From Rhodocyclaceae bacterium (GTDB lineage Bacteria > Pseudomonadota > Gammaproteobacteria > Burkholderiales > Rhodocyclaceae), in contig PMIH01000181.1 in NCBI GenBank assembly GCA_003158255.1, forward strand, positions 4,482-50,778: 46,297 nucleotides of DNA, read 5' to 3'. Below are positions 1,190 to 15,793 of the stretch, one piece after another; the first letter of the stretch is position 1, and every line of letters begins with the position of its first letter. The translations under genes and the position numbers were made by a program. Below the pieces are notes generated by a model. That model did no database searches and had not been told where the DNA came from. It worked only from the letters and a program-made list of their open reading frames with translations.

Positions 1190-2701
1190 TCAGTTTCTCT
1201 TTTCGACTTTGGTGATCACCCACTCGCCGGGCTTGCGCTCGACGAACTCGAAACTGATTGCCGTGCCTGGCTTGATGTTGGCGAACAGCGCGGCGTTGGC
1301 CGGCACGAACTCCATGGTCATCTTCGGCCACTTGAGGCTCGCCACCGGTTCGTGGCTGATGGTCACTATGCCGCCATCGATGGCGTCGAGCTTGCCGACG
1401 GCCTGATGACCGACCGCCTTGGGCTTCTCCATGCCGTCCAGCGCTGCCTTGAGGTTGCTCTCGGAGTCGATCAGGAAATTGCCTGCCGATACCACGCGCT
1501 CGCCCTCCTTCACGCCGTCGAGGATCTCGACGTACTGGTCGCCGCGCGCACCAGTCGTAACCGGTCGCGGCTCGAAGCGGCCCTCGCCGAGATCGATTAC
1601 CACCACCTTGCGGGTTCCGCTGTCGATCACTGCAGCGGTCGGCACCGCCAGCACCGCGCCGCGATTCCCGACGGCGAACTCGACCTGCGCGTACATCGCC
1701 GGCTTGAGCAGCCCACCGGGATTGGCGAGTTCCAGCCGCACGGGAATCGTGCGCGTCTCGGCCTTCAACGTTGGGTAGATGTAGGCGACCGTGCCAGCGA
1801 AGGTCTTGCCTGGATAGGCATCGACGTGCACGCTGGCCTTGCCGCCGTTCTTCACCAGCGAGATGTCCTGCTCGGGCACATCCGCGACCACCCACACGGC
1901 GGACGTGTCGGCGATCTGATAGAGCGCGTCGCCCGGCATGAAGCGCATGCCCTGCACCGCTTTCTTTTCGGTGACCACGCCTGCCACCGGCGAGGCGAAA
2001 GTCAGGGTCCGCCTTTCTCCGTCTGCGGCGAGCGCCTTAACCTGCACGTCGGAAATATTCCAGTTGCGCAGGCGCGCGAGGCTGGCGTCGGCGAGCTGTT
2101 GCATGGCGGCGCGTGAGTCCGGTGAGGCCTCGGCGGCGGCTTTCGTCGCAATGGCATATTCGCGCTGCGCGGAAACGAGTTCAGGGCTGTAGGCCTCGAA
2201 CAGCGCCTGGCCGCGAGCGACCGGCTGGCCGGTGACATTCACGTGCAGGCGCTCGATCCATCCTTCGAACTTCGGTGCAACGGTGAACGTGCGTCGCTCG
2301 TCGACCTCGACGCGACCGCTCGCGCGCAAAGCACGGTCGAGCACTCGGCGTGCCACGACGACTGACTTTACGCCCGACTTCTGCACCTTCTCGGCGCCAA
2401 GCGTGACACCGCTATCTGACGCCGCACTGTCTTCGCCCTCAAATACGGCGATGTAGTCCATCCCCATCGGGTCCTTTTTCGGCACCGGCGAGGTGTCCGG
2501 CAGGCCCATCGGATTGCGGTAGTAGAGCAGTTTCTTGCCGGCCCCCGCAGTCACCGCAGATGGCGTACTCCCACGGGGATTCCCTTCGGTCACGTCATGG
2601 CTGACTTTCGTGCCGGCCCAATAGCCGGCTCCGGTGGCAAGTGCCACCGCGACGGCGACGATCGCAAGTCGTTTCATCCCAGAGGGATTTCCGTTGGTCA
2701 T
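1190..2701 (-). CDS. cusB: CusB periplasmic adaptor with N-terminal heavy-metal-binding domain and C-terminal CusF domain
   Basis: Membrane-fusion protein bridging CusA and CusC in the periplasm. An N-terminal hydrophobic anchor (about residues 9-30) is followed by a heavy-metal-binding domain with the typical YYRNPMG...KKDPMGMDY pattern (about 58-85), then the barrel-sandwich, helical hairpin and beta-barrel regions. After the adaptor part (about residue 425 on) comes a complete CusF-like OB domain in which the His, Trp and two Met ligands known from E. coli CusF are all present (ISHEP...KWPKMTM). At 503 residues it is longer than E. coli CusB (about 407), and the extra length is the CusF domain. 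It overlaps the upstream cusC by 4 nt (ATGA), and cusA follows after one base, so the three form one operon. Confidence 0.95.
   Translation of the reverse strand: MTNGNPSGMKRLAIVAVAVALATGAGYWAGTKVSHDVTEGNPRGSTPSAVTAGAGKKLLYYRNPMGLPDTSPVPKKDPMGMDYIAVFEGEDSAASDSGVTLGAEKVQKSGVKSVVVARRVLDRALRASGRVEVDERRTFTVAPKFEGWIERLHVNVTGQPVARGQALFEAYSPELVSAQREYAIATKAAAEASPDSRAAMQQLADASLARLRNWNISDVQVKALAADGERRTLTFASPVAGVVTEKKAVQGMRFMPGDALYQIADTSAVWVVADVPEQDISLVKNGGKASVHVDAYPGKTFAGTVAYIYPTLKAETRTIPVRLELANPGGLLKPAMYAQVEFAVGNRGAVLAVPTAAVIDSGTRKVVVIDLGEGRFEPRPVTTGARGDQYVEILDGVKEGERVVSAGNFLIDSESNLKAALDGMEKPKAVGHQAVGKLDAIDGGIVTISHEPVASLKWPKMTMEFVPANAALFANIKPGTAISFEFVERKPGEWVITKVEKRN
2349..2369 (+). repeat. 21-bp dispersed motif, copy A (inside cusB, antisense)
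   Basis: CGTGCCACGACGACTGACTTT. It differs from copy B at 9894 by a single base, although it lies within cusB and is read on the other strand as part of SVVVARR. Confidence 0.5.
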
Positions 2702-3927
2702 ATTTCACCCCCAACCAATCGTTCGATCTCGGCCAGCCGCGCCTGCTGCTCGGCCTGCGCCTTGATAACGTTCTGCTTCGCGTTGCGGATCTGCCGCTGC
2801 GCATCGAGCAGCGTGGCGAAATCGACCTTGCCGTTCTCGTAGCCGGCCAGCGCAGCCTGGAAGGTCAGTTCGGCCTGCGGCAATAAGTCGCCGCGCGTGA
2901 GCTGCTCGATCCGCTGCGATGCCTCGAATGCGGAGACGTTCTCGGCAAGTTCAACCAGCAACCGATTCGCGCTGGCATCGCGCCGGGCGCTCGCCGCTTC
3001 GAGCGATCGCTCGGCCTCGCGTTCCTGGCTGCGGCGACTACCCTGTTGCAGCGGAATGTTCACTTCCAGCATCAGCTCCCATTCGCTGACGCGGCTGCCG
3101 GTCTGGATCGGCGAGACGCCGAGCGCGACATCGGGATAGCGGTTGCGGTAAGTGGCGTCGCGATTCTTCTCGGCGGCACGGATGCGCGCGTCGTCGGCGA
3201 ACAGCTGCGGATTGCGCGCGCGCAGCCGTTCCTCCAGCGCGTCGTGATCGAGATTGGCGGGCATCGGTCGCCATGCCATCGGCTCGGCGAGCGCAGCATG
3301 CGATGGCCGCGCCAGCAGGCCGTTGATGCGTACCTGAGCATGGTGCCGCTCGTTCTCGGTCTGCACGATCTCCGTCTGCAAGGCCGTGCGCTCGACACGG
3401 GCACGAATGGCATCCTGCTGCGGCGCCAGGCCATTGGCATAGCGGTTGCGGCCGATCTCCGCCAGCCGGTCGAGCAGGTCAGCCACTTCGCGGCTCAGTG
3501 CGAGTTGGCGTGAAAGTGCGTAATCGAGCGCGTACGCCGTCTTGATGCGCGCCGCGAGTTCGAGCCAGCCTGCATCGCTGCCGGCCACCGCGGCATCGGC
3601 CTCGGCCTCGGCGGCCTCGCGCTTCAGGTCGCGCTTGCCCCAGAAGGGCAGCGGCTGGATGAAGGTGTACTTGGTGCTGCGGCCCACCATGTCGGCGGCG
3701 ATGCCGCGCTCCTCGAAGCGCAGCGTCGGATCGGGCAGCGCGCCGCTGGCGGCGGCGCGTTCACGCGCGGCGTCCGCCTCCAGTCGCAGCGCGATCACCT
3801 CGGGGCTTTGCTGGCGGGCGAGAGCGAGCAGCGCGTCGACGCTGCCGCCGGGCGGACTATCTGCCCGAACGGTCAGCGCGCACAGCGCGGCCATCGCCAC
3901 CAGCCCGTGCGTAACGGGCCTGAACAT
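2698..3927 (-). CDS. cusC: CusC/TolC-family outer-membrane efflux channel
   Basis: Outer-membrane exit duct of the tripartite metal efflux complex. A signal peptide (MFRPVTHGLVAMAALCALTVRA) is followed by two long alpha-helical repeats typical of outer-membrane efflux proteins, for example the SGALPDPTLRFEERG segment after the first helix and a similar Ala/Glu/Arg-rich pattern in the second half (AGYENGKVDFATLLDAQRQ). Length of 409 residues fits the shorter TolC-like proteins of metal efflux operons. There is no lipobox cysteine behind the signal peptide, unlike E. coli CusC. The stop overlaps the cusB start by 4 nt. It lies 9 nt downstream of cusF. The outer-membrane efflux call is firm; the CusC name rests on gene order. 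Confidence 0.9.
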   Translation of the reverse strand: MFRPVTHGLVAMAALCALTVRADSPPGGSVDALLALARQQSPEVIALRLEADAARERAAASGALPDPTLRFEERGIAADMVGRSTKYTFIQPLPFWGKRDLKREAAEAEADAAVAGSDAGWLELAARIKTAYALDYALSRQLALSREVADLLDRLAEIGRNRYANGLAPQQDAIRARVERTALQTEIVQTENERHHAQVRINGLLARPSHAALAEPMAWRPMPANLDHDALEERLRARNPQLFADDARIRAAEKNRDATYRNRYPDVALGVSPIQTGSRVSEWELMLEVNIPLQQGSRRSQEREAERSLEAASARRDASANRLLVELAENVSAFEASQRIEQLTRGDLLPQAELTFQAALAGYENGKVDFATLLDAQRQIRNAKQNVIKAQAEQQARLAEIERLVGGEI

Positions 3928-3936
3928 GGCGCGCCC

Positions 3937-4227
3937 CTACTTCGCGGCTTCGATGCGGGTGACGACGATGTCGCCGCCCGACATGATGGCTTGGAAGCGC
4001 ACCTTATCGCCGGCCTTGAGCTTGGCCAACGCGGCGGTGTCCTTGACCGGAAACTGCATGGTCATCGGTCCCATGCCGACGCTGTCGATAGGCCCGTGGG
4101 CGATGGTGGCTTTGTCGCCGGCGATCTTCTTGATGGTGCCCTGCGCCCAGGGCACCTCATCGGCAGCGAACGAGGCGAACGAGAACAGCAGGGACAGGGC
4201 GATGGCGAATGCGCGCAGCAATTTCAT
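3937..4227 (-). CDS. cusF: CusF-like periplasmic copper chaperone
   Basis: Small periplasmic Cu(I)/Ag(I)-binding protein that hands metal to CusB. I chose the ATG at 4227 over the upstream ATG in the ORF track because GGAGG stands 6 nt before it and it directly begins a signal peptide (MKLLRAFAIALSLLFSFASFAAD). The mature part is one OB-fold CusF domain. The ligand motif reads IAHGPIDSVGMGPMTMQF: the His and both MTM methionines are kept, but the position of E. coli CusF Trp44 is occupied by Met. The CusF domain fused to CusB next door keeps the Trp. First of the metal efflux genes proper, followed by cusC after 9 nt. Confidence 0.92.
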   Translation of the reverse strand: MKLLRAFAIALSLLFSFASFAADEVPWAQGTIKKIAGDKATIAHGPIDSVGMGPMTMQFPVKDTAALAKLKAGDKVRFQAIMSGGDIVVTRIEAAK

Positions 4228-4306
4228 GATGAACCTCCGAATGCAATGACGAGACATTGCGGCCGTGGACGACCGCTACCGCCGCGGTGATGAGCCGCGG
4301 TTGCTG

Positions 4307-4681
4307 TCAGGCCACGCGTTTGGGCGGTTGCTGCGGCGGTTCGGGAATAGCGCTCGCGGGGGCGAGCGGCGCATCGGCGGCGAAATCTCGCCCGGCAGGA
4401 ACGACAGCGGCGACATGCTCGGGCGTCGGGAGGAAGCCGGCCGCCGCGAGATGGCAGAAGCCGCAGTCGTCGCAATTCATGCCGTGGTCCGCCGGCGCGG
4501 GCTGATGCTCGTGTATGGGGCAGTGTTCGACTGTGGCATCGTCAACCATCGCCATCATCTTGTGCGCCTCACCATGCCGGCAGAATGGCATGGCGGTCGC
4601 CGCGATGGCCTGGAAAGGCAGCCACAGGGCGGCGACGAACAGCGGCAGGAGGCGGATGAAGCGATGGTGCATGGCGATCAT
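4307..4681 (-). CDS. Small secreted Cys/His-rich protein of a copper cluster (DUF2946-like)
   Basis: About 124 residues from the ATG at 4681; another ATG three codons later (4672) is also possible, and the ORF-track start is too far upstream for the signal peptide. An N-terminal hydrophobic stretch (FIRLLPLFVAALWLPFQAIAATA) looks like a signal peptide. The mature chain is rich in possible metal ligands: CRHGEAHKMM, EHCPIHEHQ and MNCDDCGFCHL, and ends in a Pro/Ala-rich tail. Proteins of this shape (DUF2946-like) commonly sit beside copper efflux genes. A role in periplasmic metal binding is inferred from ligands and position only. It is the first gene of the run leading to cusFCBA, 79 nt upstream of cusF. 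Confidence 0.75.
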   Translation of the reverse strand: MIAMHHRFIRLLPLFVAALWLPFQAIAATAMPFCRHGEAHKMMAMVDDATVEHCPIHEHQPAPADHGMNCDDCGFCHLAAAGFLPTPEHVAAVVPAGRDFAADAPLAPASAIPEPPQQPPKRVA

Positions 4682-4732
4682 TGTAGGTAGCCGCCCTTCG
4701 GACCGCAAGGGCAACTGTCGACAGGGCAACGG

Positions 4733-5299
4733 TCAGGCCGCCATCCGCTCCCAGAGCAACCAAGCGACGAGGAAGGCCAAGCCAACGACTTCGTAGGCGA
4801 GGATGAGGATGACGACGCGCCGCCCGGTCTGGTTCATGCGCAGCCAGATTCGGTCCAGCAGCCACTTGCCCAAGCGGGCGCGCCAGCGCGGGCTGGCGGA
4901 CAGCAGGAGGTAATCCGCGGTGGCGCGCAGCCAGAGTGCCAGATTCGTGCGCGCGGGGCCGTCGTCGTCGGCGATGCTGGCATCGCGCAGCACGAGTTCG
5001 CAGATTCGATCGAACGCGGTCAACTCGACGTCGATCGTGCGCACGGCACCGCTACGGACGATCTCCAGCCGCCAGGGCGGCTGGTTGTCTGCCGCCGAGG
5101 CGAATCGGGCCTGATAGTCTTCTTCGCGATCGTCTTCGTCCAGGCGCAAGCGAACGTCGAAGCAATTCGGATCGCCGGTTGACTTCAGCGCCAACAGACT
5201 CCATTCAGGATTGAGCCGCAGCCAGGTGTCGAGCGTCGGGAAGCGGTCGCGCAGGTCTTCTGCAGACGCCGATAACCGCAAGCGGCCCTCGAAAGCCAT
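4733..5299 (-). CDS. Hypothetical protein with C-terminal membrane anchor
   Basis: 188 residues if it starts at the ATG at 5299, whose A is shared with the TGA of the upstream universal stress gene (ATGA-type junction); the longer ORF-track version reads through that gene out of frame. The soluble part (1-155) is acidic with a mix of predicted strands and helices (LNPEWSLLALKS, WRLEIVRSGAVRTIDVELTAF). A hydrophobic helix (RVVILILAYEVVGLAFLVAWLLW) follows near the end, giving a tail-anchored topology. I do not recognise the family. Coupling to the stress protein and YeiH genes suggests it acts with them. It stops 51 nt before the copper-cluster protein. Confidence 0.75.
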   Translation of the reverse strand: MAFEGRLRLSASAEDLRDRFPTLDTWLRLNPEWSLLALKSTGDPNCFDVRLRLDEDDREEDYQARFASAADNQPPWRLEIVRSGAVRTIDVELTAFDRICELVLRDASIADDDGPARTNLALWLRATADYLLLSASPRWRARLGKWLLDRIWLRMNQTGRRVVILILAYEVVGLAFLVAWLLWERMAA

Positions 5300-5733
5300 C
5301 AGCGCACAATCAGCAACGGTGTGGCGAGCCGCCGAAACAACTGCTCCGGCAAGTTGCGCGATTCGAAGCGCTGATACCAGCCTTCGAGCACGCTGCCGCC
5401 GACGACCACCAGATCGAAAGTCGAGGCCCGCGCGACGATCACCTCGGCACGATCGCCGTCGGCCAGTTCGGTGGTCGCCGCAATGCCGGCTGTAGCGGCA
5501 ATCGCCGCGAATTCCTTCAGGGCACTCAACCCTTCCTTGCGCAATGATTGGTCGAGATGCGCACGGCACTCGTTGCGACCCACGGCGTAGATCTCGTGCG
5601 TGTATTTCTCCAGGTATGGATCGACGACGTGCAGCGCGGTCAGATTAGCGCTTAAGGCGCCGGTCAGCAGCAGGGCATGGCGCAGCGCCTTTTCGGTGTG
5701 CGGCTCGCCGTCGACGCAGAAGAGGATATGCAT
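5299..5733 (-). CDS. Universal stress protein (UspA family)
   Basis: 144-residue single Usp domain, cytoplasmic. It begins with the typical first strand MHILFCVDGEPHTEKALRHAL and continues with LTALHVVDPY, and closes with DLVVVGGSVLEG...LFRRLATPLLIVR, the usual last strand ending in PLLIVR. The ATP-binding signature of the MJ0577 type (GxxG, nine residues, GS/T) is not evident after VVVGG, so it may be of the non-ATP-binding UspA type. It lies 56 nt downstream of the YeiH gene and overlaps the following hypothetical gene by one base, so the three are probably co-transcribed. The specific stress it answers to cannot be read from the sequence. Confidence 0.9.
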   Translation of the reverse strand: MHILFCVDGEPHTEKALRHALLLTGALSANLTALHVVDPYLEKYTHEIYAVGRNECRAHLDQSLRKEGLSALKEFAAIAATAGIAATTELADGDRAEVIVARASTFDLVVVGGSVLEGWYQRFESRNLPEQLFRRLATPLLIVR

Positions 5734-5789: not shown

Positions 5790-7166
5790 CTATTTGATCG
5801 CGAACACCTCGGCGCCGATGGCCATCACCGCCACCGCCGACAGCACCGCCTTCAAGGTGGCCGCGACGACGCCGATGACGAAGGCCGTACCGCCCGCCTT
5901 CTTCAAGTCGTCGAAGGCAATATTGAGACCGACGCCGGCGAAGCCGATGGCGAAGAACAGCTTGAGCAGTTCCTTGCCGAGGATGTCGCGCTCGGACTGC
6001 ACGAACATGCCGTACTCGTTCATCGTGACGATGATGAAGAAGCCGAGAATGAAGATCGGAAACTTCTCTCGTACCACTTGCCAGACGTTAACTTTCTGCG
6101 CCTCACCACCCGCCGCGATGGCCGGCTGCACGACATAGAAGTAGATCGTCCAGAGCACGATCAGCGGAATGAAACCGACGCGGACGATGTTGATGACGTT
6201 GGCGGTCAAGAGCGCTTCGTGCCCGTACCAGGACGCAGCCGCCACCAGTTGCGCCGTGTTGAGGATGGCCGTGCCCGCCCAGGCGCCGAACACGGGTTGA
6301 CTCATGTTCAGAGCCTGACCGATGTAGGGGAAGGTGAACAGCGCGAGCGTGCCGAACAACAGGATGGTGCCGATGGCATAGAAGAAGTCGCGCGGCTTGG
6401 CGTTGACCACCGGCGCGACCGCCACCGCCGCCGAGACGCCGCAAACGCCGACGCCGGCCGCCATGACGCCGGCCAGCCCCTCGTCGACCTTGGAGCGTCG
6501 CCCCCAGTACGAAATCAGGATCTGGGTGCCGAGTACGAACGTCACCACGAGGCCGAGGCCGATGGCGCCGACTTTGAGCAGGTCGGACCACAGGTAATAG
6601 CCGCCGAGGATGATGATGCCCGGTTTGATGATGGGGCGCGCGGCGATGGTGCCGGCTTTGAAGACCTCTGCGACGCCCACCGTATTGCGGATCAGCATGC
6701 CGACCAAGAGCAGCATTGCCACATAGGTCAACTGGAACTGGATGATCTTGTTGCCGAAGCTGAACTTGCCCGGCATCTCCTTGCTCTGTGCCAGATCGTT
6801 GTACTCCGACTCCTTGAGCAGATGCGGCTTGGCCGGCTTTTTTGGTTCCTTGGGCTTGGCCTGCCCGGCCTGCAACGCTCCCAATGCGGCTTTGTGCTCA
6901 TCGATCTTGGTCTTGTATTCGGCTTCCTTCAGGGCGAAGGATTCCTTGCTCTTCGCCGTGTAGTCGGCGAAGGGCGCGAACGCGCCGCCTTCCTTCCCGG
7001 CGATCGAGAGTAGCCGCTCGGCCTCCTTGTAGTCGACCGACCAGCCGTGGGTCGTGGCGTCCCATTGCAGGGCCGCCCAGCCGAATACCATGCAGAGAAT
7101 CAAACCCGGCAGCATCCTGGGCAGCGCCCGGAAGCTGTACTCGATGCCGATGCCTCCCCCCGCCAT
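5790..7166 (-). CDS. yeiH: YeiH/UPF0324-family membrane transporter (putative sulfate exporter) with large N-terminal insertion
   Basis: Polytopic inner-membrane protein of 458 residues; E. coli YeiH is about 349. Family hallmarks include NTVGVAEVFKAGTIAARPIIKPGIIILG, GVGVCGVSAAVAVAPVV, and the C-terminal KLFFAIGFAGVGLNIAFDDLKKAGG. The extra length is one charged, Lys/Glu/Ala/Pro-rich segment of roughly 100 residues between the first membrane helix and the core (about residues 38-140), probably helical, possibly coiled coil. A strong ribosome site (GGGGAGGG) precedes the ATG. The 49-aa membrane protein lies 16 nt upstream. The family name 'putative sulfate exporter' is a database label; the substrate is not shown by the sequence. 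The divergent TtrS-like sensor makes a sulfur compound plausible. Confidence 0.88.
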   Translation of the reverse strand: MAGGGIGIEYSFRALPRMLPGLILCMVFGWAALQWDATTHGWSVDYKEAERLLSIAGKEGGAFAPFADYTAKSKESFALKEAEYKTKIDEHKAALGALQAGQAKPKEPKKPAKPHLLKESEYNDLAQSKEMPGKFSFGNKIIQFQLTYVAMLLLVGMLIRNTVGVAEVFKAGTIAARPIIKPGIIILGGYYLWSDLLKVGAIGLGLVVTFVLGTQILISYWGRRSKVDEGLAGVMAAGVGVCGVSAAVAVAPVVNAKPRDFFYAIGTILLFGTLALFTFPYIGQALNMSQPVFGAWAGTAILNTAQLVAAASWYGHEALLTANVINIVRVGFIPLIVLWTIYFYVVQPAIAAGGEAQKVNVWQVVREKFPIFILGFFIIVTMNEYGMFVQSERDILGKELLKLFFAIGFAGVGLNIAFDDLKKAGGTAFVIGVVAATLKAVLSAVAVMAIGAEVFAIK

Positions 7167-7182
7167 GATCCGCCCTCCCCGG

Positions 7183-7332
7183 TCAGAAGAACAACGACTT
7201 GACGAAGCTCGGGCCGATGACGCCGAGCTTCACCAGGACGACGGCAATGGCCGCCAGGATGAGGACGAATACATCCTCTTTGCGTTCGGCCGAGAAGGTG
7301 TCCTGCGCTTTCTTTTCGAACTCCGAAGGCAT
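7183..7332 (-). CDS. 49-aa single-pass membrane protein preceding yeiH
   Basis: I start it at the ATG at 7332, which has GGGGGAA 4-5 nt upstream; the longer ORF-track start has no such site. MPSEFEKKAQDTFSAERKED forms a charged cytoplasmic-looking head, then VFVLILAAIAVVLVKLGVI is one membrane helix, and the chain ends SFVKSLFF. It is the first gene of the minus-strand run and stops 16 nt before yeiH. It has no recognised family. Its position and size suggest a small partner subunit of the YeiH transporter, which is inference. Confidence 0.75.
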   Translation of the reverse strand: MPSEFEKKAQDTFSAERKEDVFVLILAAIAVVLVKLGVIGPSFVKSLFF

Positions 7333-7504: not shown

Positions 7505-9265
7505 TTGAATTCACTCTCGCCGCTGATCCGTCCGCTCCTCGTGTTCCTCGCGCTGGTCTCGTGCGCGGCCCGTGCGCAAACCGCGCAACCGGTTCGGGTC
7601 GCTGTCCTGGCCGACAAGGGCATCGAATCTGCCGAGCAGGAATGGGCCGGATTGTTCGACTGGCTCAATCGGCGCGTGCCCGGACGATCCTTCGTGTTCG
7701 TCGGACTCGACCACCCGGAACTTCGACAGGCGGTGCACGACCACAGCGTCGACTTCGTCGTCACCAACGGCGGCAACTACAGCGAACTGGAATACAGCGA
7801 GGGCGTGACCCGCATCGCCACGCTCGACTCGCCGCTCGGGCTGTCACCGGACCAGGCGGTGGGTTCGGCGATCGTGACCAGGGCCGGTTCCGGAATCACG
7901 GAACTCGCCGACCTGAAAGGCAAGCACCTGCTGGCCGCCAGTCCGGAAGCCTTCTGCTGCTACCAGATTGCCGCTCGCGAACTGGTATTGGCCGGGATCG
8001 AGCCGGAGCGCGACCTGGGGCGACTCGAATTCACCGGCTTTCCGATCCAGCGCATCGCCCGCGCCGTGCAAGACGGCAAGGCCGACGCGGGAATCATTCG
8101 CACCTGTCTGCTCGAACAGATGATCGAACGCGGCGAAATCAAGCCGCACGCGTTGCGCGTGCTGTCTCCGCGCACGATACCGGGCTTCCCCTGCCAGACG
8201 TCCTCGCGGCTGTACCCCGACTGGCCGTTCGCGGCGCTAAGCCACACCGCACCCGAACTTTCCCGGCAGGTGGCCGTTGCGCTGCTGGAAATGCCGCGCA
8301 CGCCAGAAGGCTACCGCTGGTCGATTCCCGCGCACTACGCCATCGTCGACGAGCTATTCCGCGACCTGAAGCTCGGCCACTACGCCAACCTGCAGCAGGA
8401 AACGCTGGAGGCCCTGGTCCGGCGCTATCGCCTCGAACTCATGCTGCTCGCCAGCCTGATCGTCTTCTGGATCATCCACACCGTTCGCGTCGATTATCTG
8501 GTGGCGCTGCGTACGCGCGAATTGCGACACATGACCGAGGCCATGCGCGAGCGCCAGAATGCCCTCGACCACGCCGGCCGCCTGGCCATCCTCGGCGGCA
8601 TGGCCAGTGCCATCGCCCACGAACTCAAACAGCCATTGGCGGCGATCGGCAACTTCGCCCGCGGCATGGATCGGCGCATCGTCGCGGGCCGTTTGGAGCC
8701 GGAACCGCTGCGGGAGGGCTGCCATGAAATCGTGCAACAGAGCACGCGAGCCGACGCGACCATCGAAAAGATCAGGAGCTTTGCCAGGAAGAATGTCGGC
8801 GTCATGCGATCGGTGAATCTCGCCAGCTTCGTCAAGGAAGCTGCCGATTTGTTCGGCGTTGCCCATCCGGAGGTCTGCATCGATTGGGACGATTCGACCG
8901 ACCCGAGCGGCGCCCAGGTTCGGGCGGATGCCATCCAGATCCAGCAGGTCACGTTCAACCTGCTCAAGAACGCGTTCGACGCGCAGAAGGCGGCCGGGAA
9001 TCCGGGCGCGCCCATCGAAGTCACGCTCGCCGACATGGAGCGCGGCTACCAGGTCTCGGTGCGCGACAAGGGCGGCAGCCTCAGGGACGAAGACATCGCC
9101 CATCTCTTCGAACCGTTCTTCACCACCAAACCCGATGGCCTCGGTCTCGGGCTCGCGCTGAGCAAAGGAATCGTCGAATCGCACGGCGGCACGCTCACCC
9201 TGACGAAGGAAGCCCAGGGCGTGCGCGCCAGTTTCTGGCTGCCGGCGGAGTACCCGCATGACTGA
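7505..9265 (+). CDS. TtrS-like sensor histidine kinase with periplasmic PhnD-type binding domain
   Basis: 586 residues from a TTG start; the next in-frame codons begin a signal-like helix (LIRPLLVFLALVSCAARA). Residues about 28-290 are a periplasmic phosphonate-binding-like (PhnD/TtrS) sensor domain, with cysteines in EAFCCYQ and PGFPCQTSSRLYPDWPF. A membrane helix lies at about 311-330 (LELMLLASLIVFWIIHTV). The HisKA dimerisation region has the phospho-acceptor His372 in AIAHELKQPL, and the ATPase domain has NLLKNAFDA, a slightly altered D-box (VRDKGGSL) and FEPFFTTKPDGLGLGLA. TtrS, the tetrathionate sensor, has this architecture. It overlaps its response regulator by 8 nt. No tetrathionate reductase genes are in the window, so the ligand is uncertain. 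Confidence 0.9.
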   Translation: MNSLSPLIRPLLVFLALVSCAARAQTAQPVRVAVLADKGIESAEQEWAGLFDWLNRRVPGRSFVFVGLDHPELRQAVHDHSVDFVVTNGGNYSELEYSEGVTRIATLDSPLGLSPDQAVGSAIVTRAGSGITELADLKGKHLLAASPEAFCCYQIAARELVLAGIEPERDLGRLEFTGFPIQRIARAVQDGKADAGIIRTCLLEQMIERGEIKPHALRVLSPRTIPGFPCQTSSRLYPDWPFAALSHTAPELSRQVAVALLEMPRTPEGYRWSIPAHYAIVDELFRDLKLGHYANLQQETLEALVRRYRLELMLLASLIVFWIIHTVRVDYLVALRTRELRHMTEAMRERQNALDHAGRLAILGGMASAIAHELKQPLAAIGNFARGMDRRIVAGRLEPEPLREGCHEIVQQSTRADATIEKIRSFARKNVGVMRSVNLASFVKEAADLFGVAHPEVCIDWDDSTDPSGAQVRADAIQIQQVTFNLLKNAFDAQKAAGNPGAPIEVTLADMERGYQVSVRDKGGSLRDEDIAHLFEPFFTTKPDGLGLGLALSKGIVESHGGTLTLTKEAQGVRASFWLPAEYPHD

Positions 9266-9997: not shown

Positions 9998-12900
9998 ATG
10001 TCACGCCGCATCCTTCGCATTCTGCCGTTGCTGCTCGTATTGCCCGCCGTCGCCCAGGCGACGGAGCTGAGCCATTTCGTTCCGCTCGGCGAAGCCAAGC
10101 GCGTGCATCAGGTTTCCGTCAACTTCAGCGATGCGATGCGGCCGCTGGGCGACCTGGCAGCGCCGGATCCCTTCACGTGGAGCTGCCAGGGCAGCAATGC
10201 GGTCGGCCGCGGCCGCTGGGTGGATACGCAAAGCTGGGCGCTCGATTTCGACCGCCAACTGCCCGCCGGCGTCCGCTGCGAATTTCGGCCGGCCGCGGGC
10301 CTGCGCGATCTGGCCGGTCACACGGTGAAGGCGGCACCGGTCTATCGCTTCGACACCGGTGGCCCCGCCGTCGTCTCCATCGACAATGGTCGCTACTCGA
10401 GTGGCATCGACGAAGACGCGGTGTTCATGGTGCGGACCAACGGGCCAATCGACTTCGCGTCGGTGGAAGCGAACACATGGTGCGCGATCGAGGGCATCGG
10501 CGAGAAGGTGCCGGCGAAGTTGCTGTCGAAAGCCGACAAGCTGACTTTGCTGAGCCGTTACGGCGGCACGCCCAACGCCGAAACACTGGAGACCACGGCG
10601 GCGTTGCGTTGCGCGCGCCAGTTGCCCAACGACATGAAGGTGCAGCTCCATTGGGGCAAGGGCATCCGCGGCACGACCGGCCTTGCCACGACGGAAGCGC
10701 AGTCGCGCGAATTCAAGGTGCGGCCGCAGTTTTCGGTCACCGTCAGTTGCCAGCGCGAGAACGCGCATGCCGACTGCGTGCCGCTCTCGCCCATAGAACT
10801 AAAGTTCACCGCCTCGGTGCGCCGCGAGGATGTGATGAAAATTCGTCTCGTCGGCCCGATGGGCAAGAAGTGGCCGGCGATGGTGCGCGATGACGACGGC
10901 GAATCCGAGTTCGTCGACTACGTGCAGTTCGACAGTCCCTTCCCGGCGGAGTCGCGCTACACCTTGCAGGTGCCGGATCGCATCCGCGACGAGGCCGATC
11001 GGCCGCTGACCAACCGCGACCGACTGGCCGCGGTGGAGATCAAGACCAGCGACTATCCGCCGCTGCTCAAGTTCGCCGCCGACTTCGGCATCATCGAGCG
11101 CAAAGCCGGTGGGTTGCTGCCGGCGACGCTGCGCAATCTGGAACCGGTCGCCGAAGGCTCGACCGACACCACGGTGGACGGCAGCAAGCCCGGCACCGCC
11201 GCGACGATCCGGCTGCTGCGCCTGACGCGCGACGAGGACATCCTCGACTGGCTGCGCCAGTCGAATCAGGCGCGCGGTTACGACGACCGTCGCGTATCGC
11301 TGCTCAAGAGCGAGCCGCGTGCCCGCATCGCGCTGCTGCCGAAACCGAACGGCCCGAAGCCGATGGAAGTGGTGGGCATTCCGCTCGGCGAGCCGGGGCA
11401 GTACGTCGTCGAGGCCGAGTCGCGGCTGCTGGGCGAGCGGCTACTCGACAAACCCGAGCCGATGTACGTGCGCACGCTGGCGCTCAACACCAACCTCGCG
11501 GTGCATTTCAAGAAGGGCGACGAAAGCAGCTTGGTCTGGGTAACGACGCTCGACACCGGCAAGCCGGTCGGCGACGCACGCATCTCCGTGCGCACCTGCG
11601 ACGGCACCCAGGTGGCGTTTGGCACCACGGGCGCCGACGGCGCCATGGCCATCCGCCGGCGCCTGCCCGAGCAGCCGCGCAGCTGCAAGGATTTCTACGC
11701 GTACTTCATCTCGGCGCGCGCGAACATCGACGGCGTCGACGACATCAGTTTCGCCACTTCCGACTGGCAGAAAGGCATCGAGCGCTGGCGCTTCAAAGTA
11801 CCCTATCCAAGCCTGTTGCCGGACGTGATGACGCACACCGTGTTCGACCGGCCGTTGTTCCGCACCGGCGAGACGGTGCATATGAAGCACATTGCACGTC
11901 GCCATACCGACTCCGGCTTCGGCTTCGTGCGCCGTGAAGTCCTGCCCGACCGCATTGCCATCCAGCTCGAAGGCAGCGAGCTGCGCTTTGAAATGCCGTT
12001 GACCTGGAAGGGTGGCAGCGCCGAAACCACCTGGACGATTCCCGCCGAGGCCAAACTGGGCCGCTACTGGGTGAGCTTCCTGCGCCCCGGCGACAAGGCG
12101 CAACGGGTCTATGGTGACGAGGGCGAAATGGACGGCGAGGACGCCTGGGCCTCGCCCGGCACCTATTGGCGCGGCGGCAGTTTCCGCGTTGCCGATTTCC
12201 GTTTGCCGGTGATGCGCGGCGAAGTGGCCGTGCCGGCCGCACCGCTGATTGCCGCCTCGTCATTCGACGTCGACCTGCGCCTGGGCTACCTCGCCGGTGG
12301 CGGTGCCAGCGGCGACAAAGTGCGCCTGCGCAGCGAAATGCGCCCCGCCAGTTTCACGCCGGCGGATGATTTCGAAGGCTACGTATTCGGCTCGCCGCCG
12401 GTGGACGCGGCCGCCATCCGCGACGGTGGTTGGGGCGGCCAGCCCGAGGCGACGATCGTCGACGACCAGCGCGATGTTGCGCTCGATAAGGCTGGCACGC
12501 GACGCGTCGCCGTCGCTTCGCTGCCCAAATGGCAAGTACCTGCGAGCATCGTCACGGAAATGGAATACGCCGATCCTTCCGGCGAAACCCACGCCGCGGC
12601 GGGCACCAGCACCTGGTGGCCGGCGGCGGCGCTGATCGGTATCGGCAGCGACAACTGGGCCAGCGCGCAAGACAAGATCAAGCTGAAGCTGGCCGGGCTG
12701 ACCACGGCGATGAAACCGGCGGCCGGCCTCGCGTATACGGTGCGCGGCTGGTACAAGCGCAGCTTCGTGCATCGCAAGCGCATGATCGGCGGCTTCTACA
12801 GCTACGACACGCGCAACGACGTCGTCGAGCTAAGCGAGCTGTGCAAAGGCAGCACCGACGAACGCGGCCGCGCTGGCTGCGAGTGGGCGCCGCCGAAGAA

Positions 12901-15793
12901 CGAGAAGAACCAGCAGAGCGCGGAGCTGATCGTCGAGGCGCGCGCTGTCGACGCCGCTGGCCGCGCCAGCCACGCCGTGACCAGCGTCTGGCTCGGCGAA
13001 TCGGAAGAGACCTGGTTCGACCAGGACGAATCGGACCGCATCGACGTGCTGCCGGAGAAGAAGCACTACGAGCCGGGCGACACCGCCGTGCTGCAAGTGC
13101 GCATGCCGTTCCGCAACGCCACGGCGCTGGTTACCGTCGAGCGCGAAGGCATCCTTGATCGCTTCGTGGTACCGCTCTCTGGGCGATCGCCGACCGTGCG
13201 CGTGCCGATCAAGCCGAACTACGGACCGAACGTGTTCGTGTCGGTGTTCGTGGTGCGCGGCCGCGTCGGCGGCGTGCAACCGACCGCGCTGGTCGATCTC
13301 GGCAAGCCGGCCTACAAGCTCGGCATCGCCGAACTCACCATCGGCCGCAAGGGCTACGAACTGGGCGTGAAGGTCGACGCGGACAAGCCGGTCTACAAGA
13401 CGCGTGAAGAGGTCACGGCACGCATCCGCGTCACGCTGCCCGACGGCTCGCCGGCCAAGGGCGGCGAGTTCGCGCTCGCCGCCGTCGACGAAGCGTTGCT
13501 GGAACTGGCACGTAACGACTCGTGGCAATTGCTGACACGCATGATGGCACGGCGCGGCCTCGCCGTGGATACCGCCACCGCGCAAGCGCAAGTGGTGGGC
13601 AAGCGCCACTTCGGCCTCAAGGCGCTGCCGGCCGGCGGCGGCGGCGGGCGCCAGCCGACGCGCGAATTGTTCGACACGCTGATCAAGTGGCAGGGCCGCG
13701 TGATGCTCGACGACAACGGCGAGGCGACCGTGAAGATTCCACTCAACGATGCACTGACCACCGTGCGCATCGTCGCCGTCGCCCAGCAGGGCGCTGGGTT
13801 GTTCGGCACCGGCTTCGCGCGCATCCGCACCACCAAGGAGGTGCAGATCTTCGCCGGCCTGCCGCCGGTGGTGCGCGATGGCGACCAGTTGCGCGCCGGC
13901 ATCACGGTGCGCAACATGACGCAGCAGAAGGACAGCTTCACGGTCACACCAACGGCCAACGCGACGGTCGACGGCAAGCGCGTGACGGTGAGCGGACTCG
14001 CCGCACAGACCGTGGCGCTGGAACCCGGCGAGTCGCGCGAACTGGCCTGGCCGCTGGCGGTGCCGACCTCGGCCAACCGACTGGAGTGGCTGGTCAATGC
14101 CCGCGCCGAACATGGTGACGGTCAGGACGCGTTGCGCGCCGCGCAGTCGGTAATACCGGCGCTACCGGTGCGCGTGCAAGCGGCGACGCTTGAGCAGGTC
14201 AACGGCAGCCTCGCCGTGCCGGTGAAATTGCCGCCCGGCGCCGTGCCGGGACGCGGCAGCGTGGACGTGTATCTGAAGCCGACGCTTGGCGCATCGAGCG
14301 ACGGCGTGCGGGCGTATATGGAAGACTATCCGTACATCTGCCTGGAGCAGAAGATCTCCAAGGCGCTCGGCACACGCAGCGCGGGGCGCTGGGAGGACAT
14401 CACCGGCAAGCTTGGCACCTATCTCACCGCCGACGGACTGGCTTCCTACTTCACGAATCCGGAACGCGACAAGGGCTCGGTGCCGCTGACGGCGTACTTG
14501 TTGGCGACCGCGCACGAGAGCGGCAATACGCTGCCCGACGACGCCCGCGAACGCATGCTCGGCGCGCTGGCCGCATTCGTCGAGGGCCGGCTGAAGGAAG
14601 GCGAGCGCATGGCCTGGTCGCCGAAACCCGATCTGCCGATGCGCAAGTTGATCGCCATCGAGGCATTGTCGCGCTACGGCCGCGCCACACCGCAGCATCT
14701 CGCGACGGTGCCGATCACGCCGGGCCTGTGGCCAACCGGTGCAGTGGTCGACTGGCTGAATATCGCCAACCGCATGACGGCGCTACCCGAGCGCGAGCGG
14801 CGATTGACGGAGGCGGAGTCCATCCTGCGCACACGCATGGTCAGCTCCGGCACGCTGACGCAGTTCGCCGACGAATCCGACCACTACTGGTGGTGGCTGA
14901 TGGTCTCGCCCGACGCCACCGCGGCACGCGCCATCAGCGCGTTGATGGACCGCCCCGGTTGGCAGCGCGAGATCCCGCGCCTGGTGCGCGGCGTGATGTC
15001 GCGCCAGCACGAAGGCCGCTGGAACACCACGCCGGCGAACGTCTGGGGCGTGCTGATGCTCGACAAGTTCGCGCGCAAGTACGAAGCCGAGCCTGTGGCC
15101 GGCGAGACCGCCGTCAGCCTGCCTGGCGGCGTGCCACCACGGCTGACTTTCGACTGGAGCCAACTGCCGGCGCAGGAAACCACCAATGCGCAGCTGGCGG
15201 CGACCGGCAAGACCGCCGCGCCGGTGGCAGGAAGTGCGTGGCGCGATGCCGGCGAACGACTGCGCTTCGCCTGGCCTGATAGCGGCGCGGGACAAGTCGC
15301 CATCGAGCACCACGGCACCGGCAAGCCCTGGGCAACCGTGCAGGTGCGCGCCGCACGCGCGCTGACCACACCGCTTTACGCCGGCTTCGTGATCAAGAAG
15401 ACGGTGACGCCGCTGGAGCAGAAGGTGAAGGGCCGCTGGAGCCGCGGTGACGTCGTGCAGGTGCGCATCGACGTCAAGGCGCCGACGCGCTGGACCTGGG
15501 TCGTAATCAACGACCCGGTGCCGGCCGGCGCGACCATCCTCGGCAGCGGCCTCGGCCGCGAGTCGTCGCTGGTCAAGACAGTCGACGGTAGTGAGGGCTG
15601 GGTGAGCTTCGTCGAGCGCGCCTTCGACGGCTACCGCGCCTACTATGAATATTTCGGCGGCAAGACCACGCTGGTGTACAGCTACCGACTCAACAACAGT
15701 GGCCGACTGCAACTACCGCCGACGCGCGTCGAGGCGATGTATGCGCCGGAAAATTTCGGCGAGGCGCCGAACGAGACAATGCAAGTGGATTGA
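9998..15793 (+). CDS. Bacterial alpha-2-macroglobulin with thioester (YfhM-like)
   Basis: 1931-residue periplasmic protease trap. The ATG at 9998 has GAGGAG upstream and starts a signal peptide (ILRILPLLLVLPAVAQA). Macroglobulin-type beta domains fill the first two thirds, with a Gly-rich, bait-like stretch (LPAGGGGGRQPTREL) followed by the A2M domain core VMLDDNGEATVKIPLNDALTTVRIVAVA. The thioester motif is intact: YICLEQ with Cys1448. A helical thioester domain and a receptor-binding-like end follow. The signal peptide has no lipobox, unlike the E. coli YfhM lipoprotein, and the chain is longer than YfhM (1653). pbpC starts one base after the stop, the classical partnership in which the trap protects the periplasm while PBP1C repairs peptidoglycan. 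Confidence 0.95.
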   Translation: MSRRILRILPLLLVLPAVAQATELSHFVPLGEAKRVHQVSVNFSDAMRPLGDLAAPDPFTWSCQGSNAVGRGRWVDTQSWALDFDRQLPAGVRCEFRPAAGLRDLAGHTVKAAPVYRFDTGGPAVVSIDNGRYSSGIDEDAVFMVRTNGPIDFASVEANTWCAIEGIGEKVPAKLLSKADKLTLLSRYGGTPNAETLETTAALRCARQLPNDMKVQLHWGKGIRGTTGLATTEAQSREFKVRPQFSVTVSCQRENAHADCVPLSPIELKFTASVRREDVMKIRLVGPMGKKWPAMVRDDDGESEFVDYVQFDSPFPAESRYTLQVPDRIRDEADRPLTNRDRLAAVEIKTSDYPPLLKFAADFGIIERKAGGLLPATLRNLEPVAEGSTDTTVDGSKPGTAATIRLLRLTRDEDILDWLRQSNQARGYDDRRVSLLKSEPRARIALLPKPNGPKPMEVVGIPLGEPGQYVVEAESRLLGERLLDKPEPMYVRTLALNTNLAVHFKKGDESSLVWVTTLDTGKPVGDARISVRTCDGTQVAFGTTGADGAMAIRRRLPEQPRSCKDFYAYFISARANIDGVDDISFATSDWQKGIERWRFKVPYPSLLPDVMTHTVFDRPLFRTGETVHMKHIARRHTDSGFGFVRREVLPDRIAIQLEGSELRFEMPLTWKGGSAETTWTIPAEAKLGRYWVSFLRPGDKAQRVYGDEGEMDGEDAWASPGTYWRGGSFRVADFRLPVMRGEVAVPAAPLIAASSFDVDLRLGYLAGGGASGDKVRLRSEMRPASFTPADDFEGYVFGSPPVDAAAIRDGGWGGQPEATIVDDQRDVALDKAGTRRVAVASLPKWQVPASIVTEMEYADPSGETHAAAGTSTWWPAAALIGIGSDNWASAQDKIKLKLAGLTTAMKPAAGLAYTVRGWYKRSFVHRKRMIGGFYSYDTRNDVVELSELCKGSTDERGRAGCEWAPPKNEKNQQSAELIVEARAVDAAGRASHAVTSVWLGESEETWFDQDESDRIDVLPEKKHYEPGDTAVLQVRMPFRNATALVTVEREGILDRFVVPLSGRSPTVRVPIKPNYGPNVFVSVFVVRGRVGGVQPTALVDLGKPAYKLGIAELTIGRKGYELGVKVDADKPVYKTREEVTARIRVTLPDGSPAKGGEFALAAVDEALLELARNDSWQLLTRMMARRGLAVDTATAQAQVVGKRHFGLKALPAGGGGGRQPTRELFDTLIKWQGRVMLDDNGEATVKIPLNDALTTVRIVAVAQQGAGLFGTGFARIRTTKEVQIFAGLPPVVRDGDQLRAGITVRNMTQQKDSFTVTPTANATVDGKRVTVSGLAAQTVALEPGESRELAWPLAVPTSANRLEWLVNARAEHGDGQDALRAAQSVIPALPVRVQAATLEQVNGSLAVPVKLPPGAVPGRGSVDVYLKPTLGASSDGVRAYMEDYPYICLEQKISKALGTRSAGRWEDITGKLGTYLTADGLASYFTNPERDKGSVPLTAYLLATAHESGNTLPDDARERMLGALAAFVEGRLKEGERMAWSPKPDLPMRKLIAIEALSRYGRATPQHLATVPITPGLWPTGAVVDWLNIANRMTALPERERRLTEAESILRTRMVSSGTLTQFADESDHYWWWLMVSPDATAARAISALMDRPGWQREIPRLVRGVMSRQHEGRWNTTPANVWGVLMLDKFARKYEAEPVAGETAVSLPGGVPPRLTFDWSQLPAQETTNAQLAATGKTAAPVAGSAWRDAGERLRFAWPDSGAGQVAIEHHGTGKPWATVQVRAARALTTPLYAGFVIKKTVTPLEQKVKGRWSRGDVVQVRIDVKAPTRWTWVVINDPVPAGATILGSGLGRESSLVKTVDGSEGWVSFVERAFDGYRAYYEYFGGKTTLVYSYRLNNSGRLQLPPTRVEAMYAPENFGEAPNETMQVD
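15130..15150 (+). repeat. 21-bp dispersed motif, copy C (inside the alpha-2-macroglobulin gene)
   Basis: CGTGCCACCACGGCTGACTTT, within the coding sequence for GVPPRLTF. Same strand as the other copies. Confidence 0.45.

What the first reader, a model, noticed from the sequence alone, without database searches (positions are those of the whole stretch)
5790..7332. YeiH-family transporter with a 100-residue charged insertion and a 49-aa membrane partner
The insertion follows the first membrane helix and is rich in Lys/Glu/Ala/Pro. A micro-membrane protein is encoded just upstream. Neither belongs to standard YeiH. Together with the stress protein and tail-anchored protein it may be a regulated four-part transport unit.
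Basis: partly seen in the sequence, partly recalled or inferred. Interest (0 to 1): 0.5.

Follow-up and report, generated by a model that had tools for sequence, protein, structure and literature searches.

The report
Anion exporter with obligate microprotein partner
A membrane transporter related to bacterial sulfite/sulfate exporters always travels with the same tiny one-helix protein, and usually with a stress protein and a membrane-anchored binding protein, mostly in bacteria carrying the Dsr sulfur pathway, which makes it a candidate for their missing sulfur-oxyanion exporter.

Summary
Bases 5790-7166(-) encode a PSE-family (PF03601, YeiH-like) transporter with a ~103-residue Lys/Ala/Glu-rich insertion after helix 1. 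Bases 7183-7332(-) encode a 49-aa one-helix protein. USP and tail-anchored genes follow.

The microprotein is a real, new family (invariant F-x3-R-x-E-D, purifying selection). In genome-wide searches every strong hit lies beside a PSE gene of one subfamily: 22/22 in 369 genomes of the class. The three subfamily genes without it run off contig ends; ordinary PSE genes have none. Microprotein-bearing PSEs form one clade (98/93). USP is almost always present; the tail-anchored protein (predicted SRPBCC/START domain plus anchor) is absent from one sub-clade.

The insertion is a separate, later trait: 5/5 insertion-bearing loci have the microprotein, but most microprotein loci lack the insertion. 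So the four-part unit is supported; an insertion-microprotein pair is not shown.

Microprotein genomes are enriched for dsrA (18/21 vs 120/369 overall, p=3e-7); the window genome has dsrA, aprA and soxB. Best reading: a multi-subunit sulfite/sulfate exporter for dissimilatory sulfur oxidation. Cargo, direction and physical complex are inferred; complexes could not be folded here.

The parts
5790..7166 (-). PSE-family (PF03601) transporter, 458 aa
   Evidence: PF03601 162 bits (cut-off 24.5); TIGR00698 73 bits, below cut-off 232.6
6753..7061 (-). charged insertion (residues 36-138) between helix 1 and helix 2, predicted periplasmic
   Evidence: side inferred from N-in topology of the PSE family in PMC8396727
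7183..7332 (-). 49-aa single-helix microprotein, constant neighbour of this PSE subfamily
   Evidence: dN/dS
7273..7296 (-). invariant juxtamembrane motif FSAERKED (F-x3-R-x-E-D) of the microprotein
   Evidence: 12 of 12; present in every row read in full
7186..7215 (-). C-terminal tail GPSFVKSLFF of the microprotein, conserved only in the insertion clade
   Evidence: 5 of 5 insertion-clade loci; absent elsewhere
5299..5733 (-). universal stress protein, 144 aa, lacks the G2xG9xG(S/T) ATP motif
   Evidence: PF00582
4733..5299 (-). tail-anchored protein, 188 aa: predicted SRPBCC/START-like domain plus C-terminal helix; its start overlaps the USP stop (TGATG)
7505..9265 (+). divergent sensor histidine kinase, TtrS-like with a phosphonate-bd sensor domain (probable regulator)
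   Evidence: NF040750 327 bits, cut-off 750; same gene beside the unit in L036 and L042
9258..9878 (+). LuxR-type response regulator, FixJ/TtrR-like

Best explanation
The locus encodes a multi-subunit exporter for a sulfur oxyanion (most likely sulfite, or sulfate) that is made when sulfur is oxidised in the cytoplasm by the reverse Dsr/Apr pathway. The PSE protein is the permease. The microprotein is a constitutive small subunit whose single helix packs against the permease and whose F-x3-R-x-E-D motif sits at the membrane interface, stabilising or gating it. The USP (without ATP motif) and the membrane-anchored SRPBCC-domain protein are cytoplasmic accessory subunits that probably tune activity. 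The insertion is a later periplasmic elaboration in one clade. The divergent TtrSR-like system switches the operon on when an external sulfur compound is sensed. Shown: the genes, their selective constraint, their exclusive linkage, the clade, the SRPBCC-type fold prediction, the Dsr association. Inferred: complex formation, substrate, direction, roles of USP and SRPBCC protein, regulation.
For: Genome-wide profile search of the microprotein: 22 strong hits in 369 genomes, all 22 beside a PSE gene scoring 290-632 bits; the 3 subfamily PSE genes without it are cut by contig ends; other PSE genes (<=132 bits) lack it. Phylum sample adds Alphaproteobacteria with the same unit; family sample: 25 of 26 adjacent, the 26th begins at a contig end and is followed by USP and TA. 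Neighbours outside the unit are not conserved. Microprotein-bearing PSEs are one clade, 98/93. dsrA in 18/21 microprotein genomes, 120/369 overall, Fisher p=3e-7; window genome has dsrA, aprA, soxB. Literature: Salmonella yeiH confers sulfite resistance (PMC12880088); YeiH is the most thiosulfate-induced gene (+526-fold) in Hyphomicrobium denitrificans and a proposed sulfite exporter (PMC11582611); in Desulfovibrio vulgaris a two-component system lies divergent from USP-PSE-TM protein-USP with molybdate phenotypes (PMC10102598).
Against: No transport or interaction evidence. Most dsrA genomes (102/120) lack the unit, so it is not the universal exporter. One complete genome (G051) has the unit without dsrA or aprA. 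The Fisher test ignores relatedness. The TIGR02064 model does not tell oxidative from reductive Dsr. The transporter structure model failed (pLDDT 38).
Confidence: 0.55

Rival explanations
1. Same multi-subunit transporter, but a different cargo or direction: uptake of sulfite/sulfate, or transport of another anion (thiosulfate, tetrathionate, molybdate).
For: TtrS-like sensors belong to tetrathionate/thiosulfate systems; D. vulgaris PSE cluster mutants have molybdate phenotypes (PMC10102598); one Dsr-less genome carries the unit.
Against: Export is the role proposed for the studied PSE relatives SuyZ and H. denitrificans YeiH (PMC11582611); association with dsrA.
Confidence: 0.25
2. The reader's idea in narrower form (compatible with the best explanation): the insertion and the microprotein's clade-specific C-terminal tail meet in the periplasm and form a clade-specific interface.
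For: Insertion and KSLFF tail co-occur in 5/5 loci and neither was seen elsewhere; the micro gene lies upstream of the transporter only in this clade.
Against: Single branch of the tree, so no independent events; microprotein linkage is common to the whole subfamily while the insertion is not; interface not testable here.
Confidence: 0.25
3. A stress-signalling module: the PSE protein senses anion flux and the USP/SRPBCC proteins are the output.
For: USP and SRPBCC-type domains are typical ligand-binding or signalling folds; several loci lie near two-component or GGDEF genes.
Against: Transporter core residues are conserved; neighbouring signalling genes differ from locus to locus.
Confidence: 0.12
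4. The small ORF is a leader peptide, a type I toxin or spurious.
For: Short hydrophobic ORF upstream of the transporter in the window.
Against: Purifying selection; it lies downstream of the transporter in all other clades; protein-level motif invariant across classes.
Confidence: 0.02

Closest known systems
YeiH of enterobacteria (TIGR00698, PF03601)
   Same: Same Pfam family; linked to sulfite tolerance (PMC12880088)
   Different: The window protein scores 73 bits against a TIGR00698 cut-off of 232.6; it has a ~100-aa insertion and a microprotein/USP/SRPBCC operon; enterobacterial YeiH is controlled by the LysR-type YeiE
Hyphomicrobium denitrificans YeiH (Hden_0834) and Paracoccus SuyZ, PSE family TC 2.A.98 (PMC11582611)
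   Same: PSE family, sulfur metabolism context, proposed sulfite/sulfate export
   Different: No microprotein, USP or SRPBCC partner is mentioned in the passages read; not compared by sequence here
Desulfovibrio vulgaris DVU0539-DVU0545 (PMC10102598)
   Same: Histidine kinase/response regulator divergent from USP, PSE transporter, single-TM small protein and USP
Small accessory subunits of membrane complexes (KdpF, AcrZ, CydX; own knowledge)
   Same: One-helix proteins of about 30-50 aa that bind and stabilise a large membrane complex
   Different: No sequence relation claimed or tested; the partner here is a PSE transporter

Membership tests
PSE / Cons_hypoth698 (PF03601) | Profile match over curated cut-off | tested here: met
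   162.3 bits vs 24.5
YeiH subfamily (TIGR00698) | Profile match over curated cut-off | tested here: not met
   73.3 vs 232.6 bits
PSE (PF03601) | 9 or 11 TM helices with two re-entrant helices, N-terminus inside (PMC8396727) | tested here: inconclusive
   Hydropathy finds 9 segments; AF2 model unusable, pLDDT 38
PSE (PF03601) | Transports sulfite/sulfate outward | not testable with these tools
   Needs a transport assay
Universal stress protein (PF00582) | Profile match over cut-off | tested here: met
   51.1 vs 24 bits
ATP-binding USP subclass | G2xG9xG(S/T) motif | tested here: not met
   Motif absent in all unit USPs scanned
SRPBCC/START fold (tail-anchored protein) | Helix-grip fold | tested here: met
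   AF2 pLDDT 73.5; the 50 best PDB matches are dominated by SRPBCC/START/Bet v 1-type proteins, E from 4e-6, though TM-scores are modest at 0.4-0.6
TtrSR tetrathionate two-component system | NCBIfam equivalog cut-offs (TtrS 750, TtrR 290 bits) | tested here: not met
   327 and 168 bits: TtrSR-like, ligand unknown
Any known family for the microprotein | Match over a Pfam or NCBIfam cut-off | tested here: not met
   No hit over cut-off for the window protein or four relatives in Pfam; none in NCBIfam for the window protein

The most novel reading that the evidence does not exclude
A so far undescribed multi-subunit version of the PSE transporter, with an obligate F-x3-R-x-E-D microprotein subunit and with USP and membrane-anchored SRPBCC-type subunits, that serves as the sulfite/sulfate exporter of a set of reverse-Dsr sulfur oxidisers.
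Probability: 0.45. Interest if true: 0.72.

Novelty: new variant of a known kind. Interest (0 to 1): 0.56.

Why it matters
Dsr-type sulfur oxidisers make sulfite and sulfate in the cytoplasm, and how the product leaves the cell is poorly known. This unit gives a concrete, genetically testable candidate, and adds a new microprotein family and a new membrane-anchored SRPBCC-type protein family tied to a transporter family for which no solved relative was found by sequence search.

Tried and rejected
AF2 of the transporter with the two sequences allowed failed (pLDDT 38), so neither topology nor the insertion's fold was modelled; no complex prediction is offered. Plasmid searches found only ordinary PSE relatives. 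An attempt to reach D. vulgaris through its plasmid record failed, so DVU0544 was not tested. Promoter/terminator scan gave nothing above chance. Leader peptide/toxin reading rejected. Recurrent genes around the unit: only assorted two-component/GGDEF genes. One locus (L043, G022) has a molybdopterin oxidoreductase plus DmsC-type gene within about 4 kb, reminiscent of a sulfite dehydrogenase but not assigned. aprA does not separate dsr+ genomes with and without the unit. Papers searched held no description of this unit.

Full report
Observation. The transporter, the small ORF, the USP and the tail-anchored (TA) ORF are all real and in the stated places on the minus strand. The transporter is a PF03601 (PSE) member but not a TIGR00698 YeiH. 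The insertion covers residues 36-138 between hydrophobic segments 1 and 2. The micro and transporter genes are 16 bp apart, USP stop and TA start overlap as TGATG, and a strong Shine-Dalgarno precedes the micro gene.

Is the small gene real? Among the five insertion-clade loci it is under purifying selection (pairwise dN 0.03-0.34 against dS 0.46 to over 1). Aligned with small ORFs beside more distant transporters it shares an invariant F-x3-R-x-E-D just before the helix. A profile from 12 sequences searched against whole genomes, not only near transporters, gave 22 strong hits in 369 genomes of the class, every one beside a high-scoring PSE gene. Conversely, 25 PSE genes score above 290 bits; 22 have the microprotein, and the three that do not end at contig ends. 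The remaining PSE genes score 132 bits or less and none coincides with a microprotein hit. Samples of the phylum (10 hits, including genomes outside the class) and family (26 hits) agree; in the one family locus without a PSE gene the microprotein starts at base 5 of its contig and is followed by USP and TA. I count about 57 distinct microprotein genes over these searches, all in this setting.

Architecture. Three arrangements occur. Insertion clade (window, L003, L035, L036, L105): micro-PSE-USP-TA. Large clade, about 430-600 aa, many with extra N-terminal hydrophobic segments and with a different insertion before the last helices: PSE-micro-USP-TA. Short clade, 380-395 aa and without insertion: PSE-micro-USP, no TA. 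Exceptions: L114 lacks USP and TA within its stretch; TA was not found in two loci with short flanks (L134, L136). The microprotein-bearing transporters form one clade (98/93) separate from nine ordinary PSEs; the tree has long branches, so its inner order is unsure. The insertion is therefore most simply a later trait than the microprotein partnership.

The tail-anchored protein. No Pfam match. AF2 from three sequences gave pLDDT 73.5 with the strand/helix order of the helix-grip fold, and Foldseek against the PDB returned overwhelmingly SRPBCC/START/Bet v 1-type proteins (E from 4e-6, TM-scores 0.4-0.6). It is thus a predicted ligand-binding-type domain on a C-terminal membrane anchor. The USPs lack the ATP motif.

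Biology. dsrA is found in 120 of 369 class genomes but in 18 of 21 with the microprotein (Fisher p=3e-7, relatedness not corrected). The three exceptions are a 64%-complete genome (G260) and a fragmented one (G330), each with a same-genus relative that has dsrA, and one complete genome (G051) that lacks dsrA and aprA. The window genome itself has dsrA, aprA pieces and two soxB. That the Dsr pathway here runs in the oxidative direction is inferred from the company of aprA and soxB. The divergent kinase/regulator pair is TtrSR-like, and the same pair lies beside the unit in L036 and beside the short-clade unit in L042, suggesting control by an external sulfur compound; its ligand is untested.

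Literature. YeiH confers sulfite resistance in Salmonella with unknown mechanism (PMC12880088). In H. denitrificans YeiH is the most strongly thiosulfate-induced gene and a proposed sulfite exporter (PMC11582611). PSE proteins have 9 or 11 helices with the N-terminus inside (PMC8396727), which would place the window insertion in the periplasm. In D. vulgaris a two-component system is divergent from USP-PSE-small TM protein-USP with molybdate phenotypes of unknown cause (PMC10102598): an independent experimental hint that such a unit handles sulfate-like anions.

Verdict. The special insertion-microprotein link is not shown. Complex formation, cargo and direction remain inferences.

Noticed in passing
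L002:1402-2778(-) and 2863-3864(-) (window genome, contig C304): A second PSE transporter (458 aa, ordinary type, no microprotein) lies next to a 333-aa ORF that reads as a tandem universal stress protein; the PSE-USP association thus may recur outside the microprotein subfamily.
   Followed up: partly
window 9998-15793(+): Very large ORF (1931 aa) with the look of a bacterial alpha-2-macroglobulin, downstream of the TtrSR-like pair.
   Followed up: no
window 1190-4257(-): CusF (PF11604) and efflux-type genes (membrane fusion and outer membrane factor-like ORFs) of a heavy-metal efflux cluster, next to a CzcI-like ORF at 4307-4729.
   Followed up: no
L003:3349-3798(+): An additional USP gene (PF00582, 112 bits) directly upstream of the microprotein; L105 also shows one there.
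   Followed up: partly
L114 and L117 (genome G371): One genome carries two copies of the transporter-microprotein pair; one copy has no USP/TA within the stretch examined.
   Followed up: no
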